DNA from: Psychrobacillus lasiicapitis
GTDB lineage: Bacteria > Bacillota > Bacilli > Bacillales_A > Planococcaceae
Assembly (NCBI RefSeq): GCF_006861795.1
Contig: NZ_VDGH01000006.1
Location: 186,001 to 250,000 of the forward strand
Reading direction: 5' to 3'
DNA length: 64,000 bases
Shown: positions 5,957-40,534 of the stretch, piece after piece
Numbering within the stretch: the first letter of the stretch is position 1
Layout of the letters: each line of letters begins with the position of its first letter
Notes under the pieces: generated by a model
Database searches by the model: none
What the model was told of the DNA's origin: nothing
What the model saw: the letters and a program-made list of their open reading frames with translations, nothing else
Position numbers and translations under genes: made by a program

Positions 5957-6141
5957 CTAATGTATGTCTCTATTTCAGCAAATTGAAAAACGCGAGTTTC
6001 TTAGGGCCTCGTCTAACACGCCTGTTGTTTAGGAATTACCTTTTAATGATGAGAGGAATTAACAGTTAAATGTCGAATTACTAATTTATAGTAGGCTAGT
6101 AAATTGTCTTTAATCTAATTTTGATCCAAGGGGTGGGAAAA

Positions 6142-7014
6142 TTGGTTAAAATATTTGATTCAATTTATGTAAATAATAGTCAAGAAATTGTTCTCGAATT
6201 AAAAGACATTACTCCAAAAGGATATATAGAAAATTATAGAAGGAAATTATTTTGCTCTACAGAGGGGTGCAATGCGAAGTTATCGTTTGTCGCAAAGTCC
6301 GGGAATAGAAGTTATCTAAGAACTTGGAGGTATAGCTTACATTCCAAGCATTGCCTGCATTTTTTTGTTAAAGAAGAAGGGGAAATCAGCGGTAAGAGGC
6401 CTAATGTACAAATTGGTGTGGTTTATGGTGATCAAATGAATAGATCACAAAAAGAAGCATTTGAATTGGAATTGTTGAGTGAAGAGGAAAGAGTAAAACG
6501 ATTAGAAGATAAAAGTAGACAAAGAAATAATAGAAATAATCGATTAAGGAAAAGAAGCACATCAGAACAACTCACTATTCATATGAATCTCGATCCTAGT
6601 AAGTTAACGGAGGACATACCAAAATTAAAAGCGAGATTGTACAAAAGAGATGTAGACACATTAAAGAAGAATGACTTGGGTCATGCTAGAACGTTGATAG
6701 GTAGAATACAGAGTGTAGATTATTCAGAGCAAAATGCAATAGTAAGGATCTATAAAAACAATACGTATATGAATGTGAAATTTGAAAAAGCTTTTTTTGC
6801 TTCAGCTCCAACATACAGTAATTTGTTTCTATATATTCAGCGCTTTTCTGAAGAAAATGATTCTGTCATTTTCTGTGCCACTGGTGAAGTTAGAAAAAAC
6901 ATGGATAATGATGAATTTGAATTAATCGTAATTAATAAAGAAGGATTATTAATTCACGGAATGACCTTGCCCTCATTAGTAGCTTCTTATGCGACACAGC
7001 AACTTTCATTTTAA
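6142..7014 (+). CDS. Orphan protein with N-terminal Cys/His cluster, possible zinc-binding nucleic-acid protein
   Basis: A 290-residue protein I do not recognise. The start is TTG at 6142, because AAGGGGTGGG lies five bases upstream; an in-frame TTG at 6121 has no site. Residues about 35-75 hold CSTEGC and then HSKHC, a C-x4-C ... H-x2-HC spacing that could bind zinc. The middle (about 115-145) is very basic and Asn/Arg-rich (RQRNNRNNRLRKR), and the C-terminal half looks like a beta-rich domain. It stands alone on the plus strand and converges with the helicase/NUDIX operon, with hairpins between them. A DNA- or RNA-binding role is a guess from composition. Confidence 0.7.
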   Translation: MVKIFDSIYVNNSQEIVLELKDITPKGYIENYRRKLFCSTEGCNAKLSFVAKSGNRSYLRTWRYSLHSKHCLHFFVKEEGEISGKRPNVQIGVVYGDQMNRSQKEAFELELLSEEERVKRLEDKSRQRNNRNNRLRKRSTSEQLTIHMNLDPSKLTEDIPKLKARLYKRDVDTLKKNDLGHARTLIGRIQSVDYSEQNAIVRIYKNNTYMNVKFEKAFFASAPTYSNLFLYIQRFSEENDSVIFCATGEVRKNMDNDEFELIVINKEGLLIHGMTLPSLVASYATQQLSF

Positions 7015-7116: not shown

Positions 7117-7274
7117 TTATCTTAAAAAGCGACCCTGTGATAAGAAACGGCTTAGAAATTGAAATAGAGGCTTGTAAGAAGATTTTCTAAAACCAAGAAA
7201 TTTTAAAATGAAAGCTTATTATCAACAAACTTATAATAGATTTATTTCCCCATATAGATTATGCAATTTTAAGT

Positions 7275-7314
7275 CAAAAAAGTATCTTCAAAGTCAAGTG
7301 ACTGTGAAGATACT
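7275..7314 (-). terminator. Rho-independent terminator of the helicase operon
   Basis: Read on the minus strand, AGTATCTTCA and TGAAGATACT form a perfect 10-bp stem followed by six T residues. It sits 20 bp past the helicase stop codon. Confidence 0.75.
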
Positions 7315-7334
7315 ATTAATTATATTGGTGGGTT

Positions 7335-10220
7335 TTATTCTTCCACTAAATAATGATATATATCGTACTGTACAGGCTGTTCAAGAATCATGTTCATAGT
7401 TACAACTGGAATTTGTTTTCCGTTTTTATCGAACATTTCTTCTTCTTTTGGACTGTTTTCTATGATAGAAGTTGTCCCCATGTAGTAGAAGTCAAATCCT
7501 TCACCATCGTCTTTTTTTGTGAAAAGGTGGATGTCGAGTCCAGTTTGTTCAGCAGCTAAAATTGCTTTAACTTCATTAGATTCTAACGTTAATTTACTTC
7601 TAGTGAACCAACGAAATATATCGGTTGATAAAAATTCATCTCCGTAATTTACACTTGAATCTACTTCGTCCTTTTTATGATAGGTTACGAAAATTGGACA
7701 AGTACCATGCTTTACTCGATAGCCATAAATAGTGGAAGAATCGTCCTTTGTCCAATTTAATAAACGACAGGCATCTCTTCGTGAATATTTCTTATATAAA
7801 GTAAGTTGGCGTGTTGGATCATACTGAGCGTTTTTAATATGTGCACAAGCGATGATGTCTTCAAAAAAGGCTTTGTAGAATGGATCAAGTAAGCTAGTTT
7901 GAATTTCGTCATTAAATTGATATCTACCATCATGCAATTCAATGATAGGTTTAGAGCCATATTTTTTATGGTCATTTGTAATATGGAAGTTTAATGTAAG
8001 AATATTTTCAACTGATTCAATGGTTGCATTGTCCATATATGTGCCAAATTCTTTCAGATTATCAACATATTCGTTCTTTGAAATGATGTCATTTTGAATT
8101 AGTGCATCTATTAATAGAACTTCATGAATTCTTTTTCCGTTTAAGAACTCTTTTGAAAGCATCGTTAAAACACCTTTTTCATAGTCCGTAATTGTCGGCA
8201 ATTCTTCTTTCATCTTCAAAAGGAATTCATAGTAATTCTCTGAATATCCAACGATAACCTCGGGGTCTAAGGAATTTTGCTCTATGAAATCATGCATGGT
8301 TGGTATTCTACCGAGACGGTTTTTTACCTCCATATAAGAATCCTTTAATATTTTCAAAGTAGATAGATTAGTGTTATTGATGGCATCAAAAATGCGTTTC
8401 TTTGCAATTTCCTCAAAGTTAATTGTTGAAACTCCTTGGATATAATCAGTGTTTACTGTTCTACGGCGTACGTTATCTTTATTCATTGATTGATCGCCTG
8501 AGAGAGCAATTGGAATTAAGTAGTTGTTTTTATAGTTCCCAATGAAATCAATAATGGTTACATAGTCTTTTGTATCGTGTTTTCGTAGGCCACGCCCAAG
8601 TTGTTGGATGAATATTATACTTGATTGTGTCTGGCGCAGCATAACAATTTGATTTAAGAATGGAATATCTATACCTTCGTTGAAAATATCCACTGTTAGA
8701 ATATATTCGAGCTCGTAGCGTTCTAATTTGTTTATTGCATCTTCCCGTTCTGACTGAGAATTGTCTCCTGTAAGGGCAATAGTTTTCATTCCCTGTGCAT
8801 TTAGAACATTAGAAAGTTCATATGCTTCATCCTTTGAACTACAGAACATTAAACCTCTTAAATTTTTTCCAGAATATCCATAGTAATTTATTTTTTCAAG
8901 AATATGATGCACACGTTCATTTGAAACGAGATGTTGCAAAGTTGACGCGTTATCAATTATTTCACCATCTTTTTCATAATCTGTAACACCAAAATAGTGG
9001 AAAGGGCAAAGCATTTCTTCTTCAAGAGCAGCTTGCAGGCGAATTTCATAAGCAATGTTGTAATCAAAAAGTTCAAAAATATTATAACTATCCGTACGTT
9101 CAGGGGTTGCAGTCATTCCAAGCAAAAATTCTGGTTCAAAGTAATTAATAATATTTAGGTAAGAATCTGCCCCGGCACGGTGAACTTCATCTATTAGAAT
9201 GTAATCAAATTCGTTCTTTGCAAATTGTTGTAAGTGTCTGTTTGTAGATATTGTTTGAACAGTTGCAAATAGATACTTGGCATGGATGTCTTTGGAGTTA
9301 CCTGAAAGAATACCAAAATCATCTTCATGACCACCTAATATTTTTCGGTAATCTTGTAGTGCTTTCTTTAGAATTTGTTCTCGGTGAACGACAAAGAGCA
9401 TCTTTTTAGGTGCAAAGTTCCGTACATCAAATGCTGACAAATATGTTTTACCTGTACCAGTCGCTGAAATAATAAGACCTTTTTTTGCTCCTGTAGCTCG
9501 AAGTGTTTTTAATTGTTCAATAGCAGATGTTTGCATTTTATTAGGTTGGATAGCTAAACTATCAGCTAATGAGTTTGTTAAATATTCTGTGTTGACTTGA
9601 AATACATTTGAAGCAGCTTGTTTAACGAATGGTTGTTGCTCATAATTTAAATTATAATTGTTTATCCATTCCTCTGATAATGGGATTGCCTCGTTCCAAG
9701 CTTCTTCAAATTGTTTTTTAAAATGATGGATGATTTCTCCGTCTTCTAATGAAGTTAAATAGACATTCCATTCGTAATTAGCCTTTAGAGCGCTATCAGT
9801 TAAGTTCGAACTTCCCACGATTAATGAATAATAATCTTCATGATCAAATATGTAGCCTTTTGAGTGAAAGCCTTTAACGCCAGTTAAGCGCACATCTACG
9901 TTTTCCAGTTTTAATAGTTCTTTAAACATTTTTGGCTGATTAAAATTTAAAAAAGTTGATGTTAAAATACGACCTTTGATTCCTTTTAACTGAAGGTCAT
10001 AGAGCATTGTTTTTAGAGTAGCTAAACCACCTTCTGTAATAAAGGCGACTGAAAAAATGAAGGATTCACATGTTTTCATTTCTTGAAGAAGTGTTGATAA
10101 AACATTCTCATGTGATTTATTTGATAGCAGCTTTGGTTTGAAATTTCCTGATACGGGGTTGGTTTGATCTATAAAACTCTTATGCAAAGAATTCGTCATT
10201 TTGCGGACTAGTTGTTCCAA
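7335..10220 (-). CDS. PLD-nuclease / DEAD-box helicase / DUF3427-like fusion protein
   Basis: A 961-residue multidomain protein. Residues about 40-180 are a phospholipase-D-like nuclease domain with one HxK motif (H119-S-K121) and the matching GSSN. Residues about 225-560 are a superfamily 2 helicase: Walker A SATGTGKT (252-259), DEVH (344-347), TATPER (370-375) and QQLGRGLRKH (539-548). The remaining ~400 residues match my memory of the DUF3427 region that follows such helicases, including YKKYSRRDACRLLNW. Such proteins occur in bacterial defence and DNA-repair contexts; a single PLD motif implies dimerisation for catalysis. It starts (TTG at 10220, weak GTGAT site; ATG at 10199 is the alternative) 15 bp after the NUDIX gene and is co-transcribed with it. 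Cellular role not established. Confidence 0.88.
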   Translation of the reverse strand: MEQLVRKMTNSLHKSFIDQTNPVSGNFKPKLLSNKSHENVLSTLLQEMKTCESFIFSVAFITEGGLATLKTMLYDLQLKGIKGRILTSTFLNFNQPKMFKELLKLENVDVRLTGVKGFHSKGYIFDHEDYYSLIVGSSNLTDSALKANYEWNVYLTSLEDGEIIHHFKKQFEEAWNEAIPLSEEWINNYNLNYEQQPFVKQAASNVFQVNTEYLTNSLADSLAIQPNKMQTSAIEQLKTLRATGAKKGLIISATGTGKTYLSAFDVRNFAPKKMLFVVHREQILKKALQDYRKILGGHEDDFGILSGNSKDIHAKYLFATVQTISTNRHLQQFAKNEFDYILIDEVHRAGADSYLNIINYFEPEFLLGMTATPERTDSYNIFELFDYNIAYEIRLQAALEEEMLCPFHYFGVTDYEKDGEIIDNASTLQHLVSNERVHHILEKINYYGYSGKNLRGLMFCSSKDEAYELSNVLNAQGMKTIALTGDNSQSEREDAINKLERYELEYILTVDIFNEGIDIPFLNQIVMLRQTQSSIIFIQQLGRGLRKHDTKDYVTIIDFIGNYKNNYLIPIALSGDQSMNKDNVRRRTVNTDYIQGVSTINFEEIAKKRIFDAINNTNLSTLKILKDSYMEVKNRLGRIPTMHDFIEQNSLDPEVIVGYSENYYEFLLKMKEELPTITDYEKGVLTMLSKEFLNGKRIHEVLLIDALIQNDIISKNEYVDNLKEFGTYMDNATIESVENILTLNFHITNDHKKYGSKPIIELHDGRYQFNDEIQTSLLDPFYKAFFEDIIACAHIKNAQYDPTRQLTLYKKYSRRDACRLLNWTKDDSSTIYGYRVKHGTCPIFVTYHKKDEVDSSVNYGDEFLSTDIFRWFTRSKLTLESNEVKAILAAEQTGLDIHLFTKKDDGEGFDFYYMGTTSIIENSPKEEEMFDKNGKQIPVVTMNMILEQPVQYDIYHYLVEE

Positions 10221-10235
10221 TTAAATCACATCATT

Positions 10236-10652
10236 TCATTCAAATTTTTCGAACAGATAATTTTGTTTTATGATCTTTTCAACTGCTGGAATATCTGCTG
10301 GTGCAAAATCAAGTTTATGTAAGTTGTCGCGTGTTACCCATCTCATTTCAGCATGCTCTAATGCAAGAGGTGTACCTTGTAGTAGTTTTGCTTTGTACGT
10401 TTCTAGTCTTACTATCACTTTGTCATATTCATAGGTTGTATCTTCTACTTTTTCACCAACTTCAATTGAACAAGCAAACTCCTCTGCTATTTCACGCTTT
10501 AATGCTTGTTCTGGTGTTTCATCATCTTCAATTTTTCCACCAGGAAATTCCCAATAGTTCGGCAAAGACATTTCATGACTTCTTAAAGCGCAAAAGATTT
10601 CTTTGTTTTCATTTTCAATTATTGCTCCAACTACGTGTACTGATTTTTTCAT
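10236..10652 (-). CDS. NUDIX (deoxy)nucleoside triphosphate pyrophosphohydrolase, MutT-like
   Basis: A 138-residue NUDIX hydrolase. The NUDIX box reads GGKIEDDETPEQALKREIAEEF, shown here in parts: GGKIEDDE, then REIAEEF; it fits G-x5-E-x7-RE-x2-EE, with Phe-Ala in place of the usual final glycine. The short length, the WEFPGG segment and the FAPADIPAV end resemble MutT/YpoC-type enzymes that hydrolyse 8-oxo-dGTP, CTP or similar nucleotides. ATG at 10652 follows AGGGTGA; an in-frame GTG three codons upstream overlaps that site. It heads an operon with the PLD-helicase, linking nucleotide hydrolysis with DNA processing. Confidence 0.88.
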   Translation of the reverse strand: MKKSVHVVGAIIENENKEIFCALRSHEMSLPNYWEFPGGKIEDDETPEQALKREIAEEFACSIEVGEKVEDTTYEYDKVIVRLETYKAKLLQGTPLALEHAEMRWVTRDNLHKLDFAPADIPAVEKIIKQNYLFEKFE

Positions 10653-11248
10653 TTTACTCACCCTAAAAATATATTTGATATCATTATCATAAATGATTTA
10701 GCTGGAAATTAGCACCCTTTGTAATTTTAGTTGTGCAAACTTTTATAAAGAATAATTTAATTTGTTTAATAGAAACGCTTAGGAAATCAATTTGTGGTAA
10801 CTTTTGTATAGTAATTGGTAGGATTACTAAGTAATCAGATAGAGAAAAGAAGCTCAGAAATGAAAAATCTAAAATAGTCGTTGAAGAAGAGTTCTTAGAT
10901 TGGAAAATGGTATTTATTTGAACGTGACATTACACGGCCTTCATTTGAAACGTCATTTAAGAGAAGTGGGTTGTAAAGATAAAGTATATATGCCATCGAT
11001 GTGTTGTATTTCACTAAGCTTGTTTGAACTATAATTCAAATGACGAAATAGTCTCGGAGTAATTAAACAATGTTTGAGCACTGCATTGGCTATAGCTATA
11101 AACAAATATCGATTCAAGTTCGAAGACTGGTAATGGGACAGAATACATAAGGCGGCTTTCCTTCAAATAACTGAAAATATAGATATGTCTCCTCCCAAAA
11201 TTACAGTATAATTTAACCAATCCGTTTAATAAATGAGGTGGGATTCCG
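10653..11248. other. Intergenic region, no supported gene
   Basis: About 600 bp between the NUDIX gene and lytS. Every frame has frequent stops. A short open stretch near 10919-11031 reads as protein-like residues without a ribosome site or start context and may be a gene remnant. A TATAAT at 11207-11212 could be the -10 of the lytS operon but has no convincing -35 partner. Confidence 0.4.
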
Positions 11249-38120: not shown

Positions 38121-38207
38121 TAGTCAATTTATTTCTCTTAAATGAACATAGGTACTTCTTTTTTGGACACTCTAAGAGGAAAAAGAAAGTTACATGAGGT
38201 GAGATTT

Positions 38208-39740
38208 ATGATAATAGAAAGATCATCTGAATGGAAAGATGGTTTCATAAGTAGATTAGAAAACCAGAAACCATGGGATAATTGGACATTATATAAGATG
38301 AGTTACGAAGCAGTAAAAAACAATCTGATCACGGATTTTTCTGGACTCCAATCACCTAAGTATTTACCAAACTTAACACCTCTCGCACACCAATTAGAAG
38401 TGGCAGAAACGGTCATTAGTAGAATGAATGGAAAAGCAATTCTTGCAGATGAGGTGGGTCTAGGTAAAACAATTGAGGCAGGATTAATATTGAAGGAATA
38501 TCTTATTCGTGGACTAGTAAAGAAAGTATTGATTTTGGCACCAGCTTCTTTGATCAATCAATGGGTTGAAGAATTGAACTATAAATTTTACATTCCTGCA
38601 ATTGGCTACAGAAAGAATACCTCCATCGATTACTATGATGTAGTTGTGATGAGTATGGATACTGCCAAAAAAAGCCCTCACAAAGAACTTATATATGCAC
38701 AGAATTATGACATGATTATTATTGACGAAGCACATAAACTTAAAAACCATAAAACGAAAATTTACGAGTTTGTTCAAGGCTTGAAGAAAAAGTTTTGTTT
38801 GTTATTGACAGCAACACCTATTCAAAATAATGTATTTGAACTATTTTATCTTATTTCGTTGCTTAAGCCGGGACATCTTGGTAGTTACGAAACATTTCAA
38901 TCCTCGTTTTCTGCTAGTAAACATAGTCTAGAACATGATGAATACTTAAGAGAATTAGTTAATCAAGTAATGGTAAGGAATAGAAGAGAAGAGACAGGTA
39001 TTGAATGGACAAGTCGTCGTGTCCAAACTATACCAATCGAATTTACGAAAGAAGAAAGAGAAGTTTATGATTTGATATTGGAACTTAAAAATGTCTCCTC
39101 AGTCTTTTCTGGTGCATTTTCGATGATTACTTTGCAAAAGGAAATGTGTAGCAGCAAAGAAGCGACCTATTTGACGTTAAATAAAATGCGGCAAAACTGT
39201 ACTACTCCAGAGGAAATTGCCTTCGTTGATCATATTATTCAAAAACTAATGACATTGGAAATAAACTCGAAGGCAGAAAAAGTGTATGAGATTATCTCCC
39301 AAGCAAATGATAAGGTGATTATCTTTACGGAATATAAGGCCAGTCAAGTTTACCTGCAGTGGTACTTAAATTCTAAAGGCATAACAAGTGTACCCTTTAA
39401 TGGGCAATTCAATAAGAGTAAAAGAGAATATATGAAGCATCTATTTAAAGAAAAATTCCAAGTGTTAATCGCTACTGAGTCTGGTGGGGAAGGGATAAAC
39501 CTTCAGTTCTGTCATCACGTCATAAACTATGACTTGCCGTGGAATCCGATGAAGCTAGAGCAACGAATCGGACGTGTCCATCGGTTAGGACAAGAACATG
39601 ATGTTCATATTTACAATTTAGCGATTGAAAATACGATTGAAAAAGATATATTGGAACTACTTTATGTTAAATTAGATGTCTTTGAAAAAGTAGTAGGAGA
39701 GCTGGACGATATACTGACAACTTTTAAAAAGACAATTTAA
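38208..39740 (+). CDS. yqhH: SNF2-family helicase YqhH
   Basis: A 510-residue SWI2/SNF2 ATPase. Motif I is ADEVGLGKTIEAG (about residue 85-97), motif II DEAHKLKN, motif III LLTATPIQNN, and motif VI QRIGRVHRLGQ near the C-terminus. Family proteins translocate on double-stranded DNA to remodel protein-DNA complexes, as RapA does with RNA polymerase. The ATG at 38208 follows GAGGTGAG; earlier in-frame starts lack a site. Paired with yqhG 11 bp downstream, as in B. subtilis, where the pair lies next to the glycine cleavage genes. Confidence 0.9.
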   Translation: MIIERSSEWKDGFISRLENQKPWDNWTLYKMSYEAVKNNLITDFSGLQSPKYLPNLTPLAHQLEVAETVISRMNGKAILADEVGLGKTIEAGLILKEYLIRGLVKKVLILAPASLINQWVEELNYKFYIPAIGYRKNTSIDYYDVVVMSMDTAKKSPHKELIYAQNYDMIIIDEAHKLKNHKTKIYEFVQGLKKKFCLLLTATPIQNNVFELFYLISLLKPGHLGSYETFQSSFSASKHSLEHDEYLRELVNQVMVRNRREETGIEWTSRRVQTIPIEFTKEEREVYDLILELKNVSSVFSGAFSMITLQKEMCSSKEATYLTLNKMRQNCTTPEEIAFVDHIIQKLMTLEINSKAEKVYEIISQANDKVIIFTEYKASQVYLQWYLNSKGITSVPFNGQFNKSKREYMKHLFKEKFQVLIATESGGEGINLQFCHHVINYDLPWNPMKLEQRIGRVHRLGQEHDVHIYNLAIENTIEKDILELLYVKLDVFEKVVGELDDILTTFKKTI

Positions 39741-39751
39741 GGAGGATCATT

Positions 39752-40534
39752 ATGTATCCACAACAAGTTCACGATTACTTACAAAAGTTTTTCAAGGAAA
39801 ATAATTGTGAAATAGTGCAGGGTAATGAGCATTATATGACTGTTCAATTAACAGTTGATATGGACAAAAAAATTATGAATCGCCCTTTTCATTGGCAGTA
39901 TATAGAGAATACAAACGGTGTACCGGACCCGGCTCAATTAACTTTAATCACAGATCAAACGAAGGTTAGTAAGAATATGAAAGGAGAGGTAGTGCATTTT
40001 GGTTCTCCTAGACTAAGTCAGATCTTTCATACAACAAGAGAGCTTGGTGCTTGCGTACAAATGTATGAACGAATATTAAATAACATGGAAACAAGACCTA
40101 TATTAACTCCATGGCTAGGGGTGAATTATAAAGTATCGTATTATTGTGATCGAACGAAGGAAATGCTTTATTCATTAGGTATTAACTTAATGACTGGTGA
40201 GGTTATAAATGGTTTTCAGGAATCGATCGCTACCAAGGAGTTGGATGATCAAAAGTCAGAAAGGGCCTTTCTTTTACCTTATATTATTAAGCCTCTTCGT
40301 GCACTAGATAGATTAGATACTGTAATTGAAAATCTGATACAACAGGAAGATCACGCATGGGCAGAAGAAGCAAAAAGTAGATGGCAAAAAGATCAGGAGA
40401 TTTTAGAGCACTTTTACGAAGAGGTAGAAGAAAAGCCGGAATGCTATGAGTTGGAGAAAAAAGCAATGGAAGAACAATACGGAGCAAAGATTAAAATTGA
40501 CATTATAAACGGTGGATTATTTTATATAAGGTGA
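39752..40534 (+). CDS. yqhG: YqhG family protein
   Basis: A 260-residue soluble protein corresponding to YqhG of B. subtilis (start MYPQQVHDYLQKFF and a final IDIINGGLFYIR). No known catalytic motif; rich in acidic and aromatic residues. AGGAGG precedes the ATG and the gene follows yqhH by 11 bp, so the two are co-expressed and may act together on DNA or RNA polymerase. The TGA stop is contributed by the first bases of a family 2 repeat that follows directly. Confidence 0.88.
   Translation: MYPQQVHDYLQKFFKENNCEIVQGNEHYMTVQLTVDMDKKIMNRPFHWQYIENTNGVPDPAQLTLITDQTKVSKNMKGEVVHFGSPRLSQIFHTTRELGACVQMYERILNNMETRPILTPWLGVNYKVSYYCDRTKEMLYSLGINLMTGEVINGFQESIATKELDDQKSERAFLLPYIIKPLRALDRLDTVIENLIQQEDHAWAEEAKSRWQKDQEILEHFYEEVEEKPECYELEKKAMEEQYGAKIKIDIINGGLFYIR

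What the first reader, a model, noticed from the sequence alone, without database searches (positions are those of the whole stretch)
7335..10652. NUDIX hydrolase + PLD-nuclease/DEAD-helicase/DUF3427-like operon: a possible little-known DNA-processing or defence module
Seen: 15-bp spacing, same strand, own terminator. The large protein joins a single-HxK PLD nuclease domain, a complete SF2 helicase and a long C-terminal region. Known: nuclease-helicase fusions are frequent in anti-phage systems and PLD domains in restriction enzymes; NUDIX enzymes act on nucleotides. Inference: the NUDIX enzyme could process a nucleotide signal or damaged pool while the helicase-nuclease acts on DNA. It is not next to other defence genes, which weakens the case.
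Basis: partly seen in the sequence, partly recalled or inferred. Interest (0 to 1): 0.6.

Follow-up and report, generated by a model that had tools for sequence, protein, structure and literature searches.

The report
Methylated-DNA cutter paired with nucleotide cleaner
The two genes are a bacterial immune enzyme that shreds DNA carrying methylated cytosine (a relative of SauUSI of Staphylococcus aureus) and a small nucleotide-destroying enzyme that travels with it almost everywhere, probably to keep methylated building blocks out of the cell's own DNA.

Summary
The helicase-nuclease (7335-10220, minus strand) is a full-length SauUSI-type Type IV restriction enzyme: 995 bits to the SauUSI crystal chain over residues 2-959, with the PLD HxK motif, SF2 motifs and most of the 5-methylcytosine pocket conserved. 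The defence guess is right, but the enzyme family is known. The partner is the news. In 151 family genomes all 66 SauUSI-class genes have this NUDIX gene just upstream; across Bacilli 30 of 34 are linked, in two orientations. In S. aureus the neighbour is identical to PDB 5x1x 'MutT'. Relatives without the DUF3427/SRA domain lack it (0 of 42) and carry a different, MazG-like protein (41 of 42). SauUSI-class genomes avoid C5-cytosine methyltransferases (21/66 vs 60/85; within-genus permutation P = 0.0002); sister genomes carry C5-methyltransferase systems at the same site. The NUDIX has NudG-like residues; E. coli NudG prefers 5-methyl-dCTP. Best reading: the nuclease removes modified-C DNA, the NUDIX removes modified dCTP. 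Linkage is shown; substrate and purpose are inferred. The adjacency was noted in print in passing.

The parts
7335..10220 (-). [quoted passage not shown]
   Evidence: PADLOC mREase_IV PDLC03658 1026.9 bits over residues 3-959; PDB 7clg (SauUSI) 994.8 bits over 2-959; Pfam domains
9648..10220 (-). PLD nuclease domain by alignment to SauUSI residues 1-191; H119 and K121 at 9858-9866
   Evidence: alignment against catalytic residues given in PMC7913695 section 24; E126 of SauUSI is D here
8580..9551 (-). SF2 helicase-like ATPase (ResIII and Helicase_C, residues 224-547; SATGTGKT at 252-259, DEVH at 344-347)
   Evidence: Pfam; sequence
7347..8162 (-). DUF3427 region (residues 687-958) holding the SRA-type 5mC reader; pocket residues Y834, F844, V845, D861, W871
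   Evidence: Pfam 301.5 bits; alignment to SauUSI Y831, F841, I842, D858, W868; M829 is Y832 here
10236..10652 (-). NudG/MutT-like NUDIX hydrolase (PADLOC candidate family PDC-S07); GTG start at 10661 also possible
   Evidence: PDC-S07 181.4 bits; PDB 5x1x 133.6 bits; Nudix box intact, NudG-type W37, H103, D123
7275..7314 (-). intrinsic terminator of the pair
   Evidence: fold z = -5.55 with U-run
7122..11127 (.). variable segment holding only the pair; the flanks on both sides are conserved in sister genomes, mostly without the pair
   Evidence: left flank aligned to about 7121 in L227-L229, right flank from about 11128-11175 in L231-L234

Best explanation
The pair is a two-part Type IV restriction module. 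Part one, shown by homology: a SauUSI-type enzyme whose SRA/DUF3427 domain reads 5-methyl- or 5-hydroxymethylcytosine, whose SF2 motor translocates on DNA, and whose dimeric PLD nuclease cuts. Part two, shown as a conserved partner: a NUDIX pyrophosphatase with an intact catalytic box. Inferred: the NUDIX converts 5-methyl-dCTP (and perhaps 5-hydroxymethyl-dCTP) to the monophosphate. A host carrying SauUSI must keep its own DNA free of 5mC at target sites; modified nucleotides released from shredded foreign DNA, or made by a phage, could be re-phosphorylated and incorporated at random, creating self-targets. The NUDIX would close that gap and would also starve phages that build modified dCTP. 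Confidence by layer: SauUSI-type enzyme 0.95; NUDIX a functional partner 0.85; substrate a cytosine-type dNTP 0.55; the self-protection or pool-policing purpose as stated 0.4.
For: Full-length match to SauUSI with catalytic and most pocket residues kept. Linkage: 66 of 66 class I genes in the family, 30 of 34 in Bacilli, 77 of 80 named GTDB loci, 5 of 6 near full-length plasmid-collection records including a Bacteroidota plasmid. Arrangement changed at least 10 times on the class I tree of 120 enzymes while the genes stayed within 300 bp, including convergent order, so proximity itself seems kept. The S. aureus gene beside SauUSI is identical to PDB 5x1x over the 128 aligned residues. Of 129 paired NUDIX proteins all keep the catalytic box and 128 keep D123, aligned with NudG Asp (Asn in MutT). 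NudG prefers 5-methyl-dCTP over CTP (1,300 vs 47 in one table, PMC5158307, passage). Two Lactobacillales plasmid copies carry a further gene after SauUSI; the L. plantarum one matches dCTP pyrophosphatase 1/RS21-C6, a fold unrelated to NUDIX whose mammalian members hydrolyse 5-methyl-dCTP (PMC10742078, passage). Class I genomes avoid C5-methyltransferases: 21/66 vs 60/85, within-genus permutation P = 0.0002; other Bacilli families 5/24 vs 102/204, P = 0.009.
Against: No substrate was measured. Overall similarity does not separate NudG from MutT (68.8 vs 66.4 bits) and neither NCBIfam equivalog cut-off is reached. 27 of 81 good NUDIX hits in Bacilli are not within 5 kb of any such enzyme and, where inspected, mostly sit beside ordinary genes, so the NUDIX has uses of its own. 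A single SauUSI polypeptide was reported sufficient in vitro and in E. coli (review PMC3874153, passage), so the NUDIX is not needed for cutting. Class IIa enzymes (22 of 23 linked to NUDIX) show no avoidance of C5-methyltransferases outside the family (11/23). 21 of 66 class I genomes do have a C5-methyltransferase, of unknown site.
Confidence: 0.45

Rival explanations
1. The NUDIX is the offensive second arm: it destroys the modified dCTP that cytosine-modifying phages build during infection, so pool and polymer are attacked together; host protection is incidental.
For: Same substrate logic as the best explanation; patchy, mobile distribution with plasmid copies; PADLOC lists the family as a phage-defence candidate, PDC-S07.
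Against: No phage data. Much of the DNA that a SauUSI-type host must reject is methylated after synthesis, where no modified dNTP is made (inference), yet the NUDIX is nearly universal beside the enzyme.
Confidence: 0.25
2. The NUDIX is a general house-cleaning MutT (8-oxo-dGTP or 2-OH-dATP), useful anywhere and merely carried along with a mobile restriction gene.
For: Solo copies beside ordinary genes; equal overall similarity to MutT and NudG.
Against: 66 of 66 linkage and perfect co-presence in the genus sample (NUDIX in 8 of 8 genomes with class I or IIa, in none of the other 9); linkage rebuilt in several orders; absent beside the DUF3427-less class III, 42 of 42 in the family.
Confidence: 0.15
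3. The NUDIX regulates SauUSI by protein contact, or depletes CTP/dCTP as an abortive response once SauUSI is triggered.
For: Tight spacing in the common order (14-59 bp in 64 of 66).
Against: Catalytic box invariant in 129 of 129; convergent order in many copies; class III uses an unrelated pyrophosphatase-like partner, pointing to chemistry, not to one binding surface.
Confidence: 0.1

Closest known systems
SauUSI (Type IV restriction enzyme of Staphylococcus aureus, PDB 7clg)
   Same: Whole-length homologue with the same order: PLD nuclease, SF2 ATPase, coupler, SRA-type DUF3427 reader; HxK and most pocket residues conserved.
   Different: E126 to D, M829 to Y832, I842 to V845 in the window protein. 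SauUSI is described as a single-chain enzyme in the passages read, and its NUDIX neighbour is not mentioned in them.
PDC-S07 (PADLOC phage-defence candidate) / S. aureus MutT structure 5x1x
   Same: P0002 matches PDC-S07 at 181 bits and 5x1x at 133.6 bits; the S. aureus gene beside SauUSI encodes the 5x1x sequence.
   Different: PDC-S07 is a bare candidate name. One S. suis study reports it co-localised with RM type IV in 23 of 23 (PMC12813430, passage); a figure legend in PMC7641849 notes MutT homologues beside SauUSI homologues in Streptococcus. Neither passage gives a function.
E. coli NudG (Orf135), CTP / 5-methyl-dCTP pyrophosphohydrolase (PDB 2rrk)
   Same: Nudix box and the W37, E38, H103 and D123 positions.
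   Different: Only 98.8 bits against a NudG cut-off of 156; NudG is not described as a restriction partner in the passages read.
LlaJI-type and other C5-methyltransferase restriction systems at the same site in sister genomes
   Same: Occupy the same chromosomal slot in Psychrobacillus relatives.
   Different: They protect self by methylating cytosine; SauUSI-type enzymes attack methylated cytosine.

Membership tests
SauUSI-type Type IV restriction enzyme | full-length similarity to SauUSI | tested here: met
   994.8 bits over residues 2-959 of 961 to 7clg; PADLOC mREase_IV 1026.9 bits
SauUSI-type Type IV restriction enzyme | PLD nuclease motif H(x)K(x)4E | tested here: met
   H119 and K121 present; the last position is D126 rather than E (residues)
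SauUSI-type Type IV restriction enzyme | SF2 helicase-like ATPase with intact motifs | tested here: met
   ResIII and Helicase_C; SATGTGKT and DEVH present
SauUSI-type Type IV restriction enzyme | SRA reader with 5mC pocket (Y831, F841, I842, D858, W868; M829) | tested here: met
   Y834, F844, V845, D861, W871 align; M829 replaced by Y832
SauUSI-type Type IV restriction enzyme | 5mC/5hmC-dependent cleavage at S5mCNGS | not testable with these tools
   indirect only: class I genomes avoid C5-methyltransferases
NudG (5-methyl-dCTP hydrolase) | NCBIfam equivalog score for NudG | tested here: not met
   98.8 bits, cut-off 156; so not filed as NudG, only called NudG-like
MutT (8-oxo-dGTPase) | NCBIfam equivalog score for MutT | tested here: not met
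   102.8 bits, cut-off 148; TIGR00586 94.3, cut-off 97.9
NUDIX hydrolase | Nudix box Gx5Ex7REUxEExGU | tested here: met
   catalytic G, E, R, E, E, E positions invariant in 129 of 129 paired proteins; the late Gly is Ala in the window protein; the box formula is recalled
NudG (5-methyl-dCTP hydrolase) | hydrolysis of 5-methyl-dCTP | not testable with these tools
   needs an enzyme assay

The most novel reading that the evidence does not exclude
SauUSI restriction is not a one-gene system but the best-known half of a general design: a PLD-helicase nuclease whose reader senses a particular modified base in DNA, coupled to an NTP pyrophosphatase that removes the matching modified dNTP from the pool.
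Probability: 0.35. Interest if true: 0.78.

Novelty: new member of a known kind. Interest (0 to 1): 0.58.

Why it matters
SauUSI is a main barrier to gene transfer in S. aureus and has been studied alone. If its near-universal NUDIX neighbour destroys modified dCTP, the textbook single-polypeptide Type IV enzyme becomes a two-part system, the old question of what 5-methyl-dCTP hydrolases such as NudG are for gets a concrete answer, and a structure already in the PDB (5x1x) acquires a testable job. The parallel class III / MazG-like pair offers a built-in control.

Tried and rejected
Rejected: 'little-known helicase' (it is SauUSI-type). Rejected: chance adjacency or plain house-keeping position. 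Considered and weakened: anti-association of solo NUDIX with C5-methyltransferases (7/14 vs 49/57, P = 0.007); by my hand count from the lists it rests on one genus (g14) and is not used. Led nowhere: SauUSI-type pairs in IMG/VR viral contigs (18 distant helicase hits, none a full-length SauUSI); NUDIX in phage records (13 hits, the best two unannotated Staphylococcus records, not followed); PDB search with the MazG-like P0003 (no hit), and its predicted fold gave mostly MazG/PRA-PH top hits but none below E 0.2; the class III C-terminal model (pLDDT 75, almost all helix, no SRA barrel) was not searched further. The original SauUSI paper (Xu 2011) is not held, so whether it mentions the NUDIX neighbour is unknown. 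Mirror-tree correlation of NUDIX and nuclease was modest (r = 0.32, 0 of 999 permutations) and adds little.

Counting caveats: classes I, IIa, IIb, III are my own cuts by score and open-frame length; G114 (526 aa, 106 bits) was counted in class III and left out of the class III list. G046 and G365 have split nuclease genes, so their printed distances are long. The loci overlap in part (the same genome can appear twice), so its 161 is not a count of species. One search's within-genus test covers 147 of 151 genomes; four had no genus label in view. In one search three arrangements are distorted by a neighbouring class III gene; one search corrects this.
Full report
WHAT IS THERE. On the minus strand of the window two ORFs lie 15 bp apart: 10236-10661 (NUDIX; homologues start at the ATG at 10652) and 7335-10220 (961 aa). 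A hairpin with a U-run follows at 7314-7281 (z = -5.55). Pfam finds PLDc_2, ResIII, Helicase_C and DUF3427 (301.5 bits) in the large protein and NUDIX in the small one.

THE LARGE PROTEIN IS A SauUSI-TYPE ENZYME. PADLOC's Type IV model mREase_IV matches residues 3-959 with 1026.9 bits, and the chain of 7clg, the SauUSI crystal, matches residues 2-959 with 994.8 bits. Sections 24 and 25 of PMC7913695 give the domain borders and key residues of SauUSI. By the alignment the window protein keeps H119 and K121 (E126 is D), S142 and N143 of the sulfate path, and the SRA pocket Y831, F841, D858, W868 as Y834, F844, D861, W871, with I842 as V845 and M829 as Y832. SauUSI cuts DNA with 5mC or 5hmC at S5mCNGS, needs ATP and two sites, and translocates on DNA (passages of PMC7913695 and PMC3874153). 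That the window enzyme has the same specificity is inference.

THE NUDIX IS ITS CONSTANT PARTNER. In 151 genomes of the family, searches with each protein give 66 SauUSI-class genes (class I), and all 66 have the NUDIX at the 5' side on the same strand, 64 of them 14-59 bp away. Longer relatives that also carry DUF3427 (class II, about 1050 aa; DUF3427 found in the four tested) have it in 10 of 14, five upstream and five convergent. Shorter relatives without DUF3427 (class III, about 800 aa; six tested, none has it) have it in 0 of 42. In 250 genomes of Bacilli class I is linked within 5 kb in 30 of 34 (22 upstream, 8 convergent downstream), class IIa in 22 of 23, class IIb in 1 of 11; of 62 class III rows five have it within 5 kb, of which only G200 lies under 500 bp and there a linked class IIa gene sits beside it. 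Of 80 named GTDB loci 77 have the NUDIX within the 3-kb flank; of the three without, two are cut by a contig end and one has an interrupted nuclease. Of six plasmid-collection records with near full-length hits, five have the NUDIX just upstream, among them a Hymenobacter (Bacteroidota) plasmid, and the Fusobacterium record has none within 4 kb. On a tree of 120 class I enzymes with the NUDIX within 300 bp the arrangement changed at least 10 times. Convergent copies cannot be explained by a shared promoter, so nearness itself seems selected.

S. AUREUS HAS IT TOO. Directly before SauUSI in a S. aureus record (L247) lies a 130-aa NUDIX whose sequence equals the 5x1x 'Mutator mutT protein' chain over the 128 residues printed. 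So the partner of the reference enzyme already has a structure.

ADJACENCY IN PRINT. The adjacency has been seen before: a figure legend in PMC7641849 (section 11 and passages read) says that small proteins beside SauUSI homologues in Streptococcus are MutT homologues, and PMC12813430 (passages) reports PDC-S07 with RM type IV co-localised in 23 of 23 occurrences in S. suis. PMC11514479 (passages) lists PDC-S07 in at least two S. thermophilus strains; no functional result for it was seen in those passages. The searches 'SauUSI + nudix', 'type IV restriction + nudix', 'PDC-S07', 'SauUSI + MutT' and '5-methyl-dCTP + modification-dependent restriction' returned no paper in which I saw a function for the pairing; I opened only some of the papers listed, and the library lacks Xu 2011 and most subscription journals.

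WHAT THE NUDIX PROBABLY DOES. The catalytic box is invariant in 129 of 129 paired proteins. At position 123, 128 of 129 have Asp as in NudG, where MutT has Asn; position 37 is Trp as in NudG (Leu in MutT) and 103 is His as in NudG (Gly in MutT). That the MutT Asn reads 8-oxoguanine, and that this Asp and Glu38 correspond to NudG residues tied to substrate choice, is recalled and comes from no call. The solo copies examined (39) show the same residues, so the signature marks the family, not the pairing. NudG's preferred substrate is 5-methyl-dCTP (1,300 against 47 for CTP in a table of PMC5158307, passage; also PMC3744803, passages). In Lactiplantibacillus plantarum and Limosilactobacillus fermentum plasmids a third gene after SauUSI is a MazG-like pyrophosphohydrolase; the L. 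plantarum protein matches human dCTP pyrophosphatase 1 and RS21-C6 (E = 4.5e-7 and 6e-6), and PMC10742078 (passage) names these as 5-methyl-dCTP hydrolases. Only two of the SauUSI-class ORFs examined have such a gene within 1.5 kb. Two unrelated folds known for the same substrate, each beside an enzyme that attacks 5mC DNA, is the main argument for a cytosine substrate. It is still inference.

GENOMIC TEST OF THE 5mC READING. A SauUSI-type host should avoid methylating its own cytosines. C5-methyltransferases (PF00145) occur in 21 of 66 class I genomes and 60 of 85 others; in the window's genus sample 0 of 7 against 8 of 10; permuting within genera gives 35.3 expected overlaps against 21 observed, P = 0.0002. 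In Bacilli outside the family it is 5 of 24 against 102 of 204, P = 0.009, not corrected for relatedness. Class III shows nothing (10/12 vs 46/59; 20/37 vs 71/144). Against a uniform story, class IIa shows no avoidance outside the family (11/23 vs 91/181). In sister Psychrobacillus genomes the flank beside the 297-aa gene (6121-7014) leads instead to a LlaJI-type system with two C5-methyltransferases (L227) or to two other C5-methyltransferases (L229), or to unrelated genes (L228), while G135 has the pair. The locus is an exchange site for restriction systems, and the pair is the window's occupant.

A PARALLEL SYSTEM. Class III nucleases have their own fixed partner: 41 of 42 are preceded on the same strand, within 77 bp, by a 108-aa protein. 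Its alignment shows invariant acidic residues spaced like the EExxE/ExxD motif of all-alpha NTP pyrophosphatases (the motif is recalled; residues), its model is all-helical (pLDDT 94) and most of the top ten Foldseek hits are MazG or PRA-PH proteins, though none is significant. This family also has solo copies. If it is a pyrophosphatase, reader and pyrophosphatase change together between classes.

VERDICT. The large gene is a new member of a known family and the pair as such is not new to databases. The generality of the pairing, its survival of rearrangement, the switch of partner with the switch of reader, and the methyltransferase avoidance make a specific and cheap experiment worthwhile.

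Noticed in passing
L062-L068, L145 (class III loci): PLD-helicases of about 800 aa without DUF3427 are preceded by a 108-aa MazG/PRA-PH-like protein in 41 of 42 family genomes; a second nuclease-pyrophosphatase-like pair, sometimes beside a SauUSI-NUDIX pair.
   Followed up: partly
window 6121-7014 and L227-L230: The 297-aa gene of unknown function (no Pfam hit above cut-off) marks one edge of a site where Psychrobacillus genomes exchange restriction systems.
   Followed up: partly
L039, L040: Solo copies of the NUDIX lie next to C5-cytosine methyltransferases, in L039 with an EcoO109I-type endonuclease and a HEC-06-like gene, in L040 with a 353-aa unknown.
   Followed up: partly
L038:9384-10304: A solo NUDIX lies beside two ORFs (154 and 134 aa) that look like one split gene ending in an HNH nuclease domain (PADLOC HNH model positions 142-234 of 286).
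   Followed up: no
L244, L248: Lactobacillales plasmids carry NUDIX, SauUSI homologue and a MazG-like pyrophosphohydrolase gene in a row; in L244 a GIY-YIG/Schlafen-group helicase follows.
   Followed up: partly
L141, L143: A more distant NUDIX and a solo copy of the MazG-like protein are neighbours without any nuclease.
   Followed up: no
window 38142-40534: A SNF2-type helicase followed by a 260-aa gene; looks like the ordinary yqhH-yqhG pair of Bacillus (recalled, not tested).
   Followed up: no
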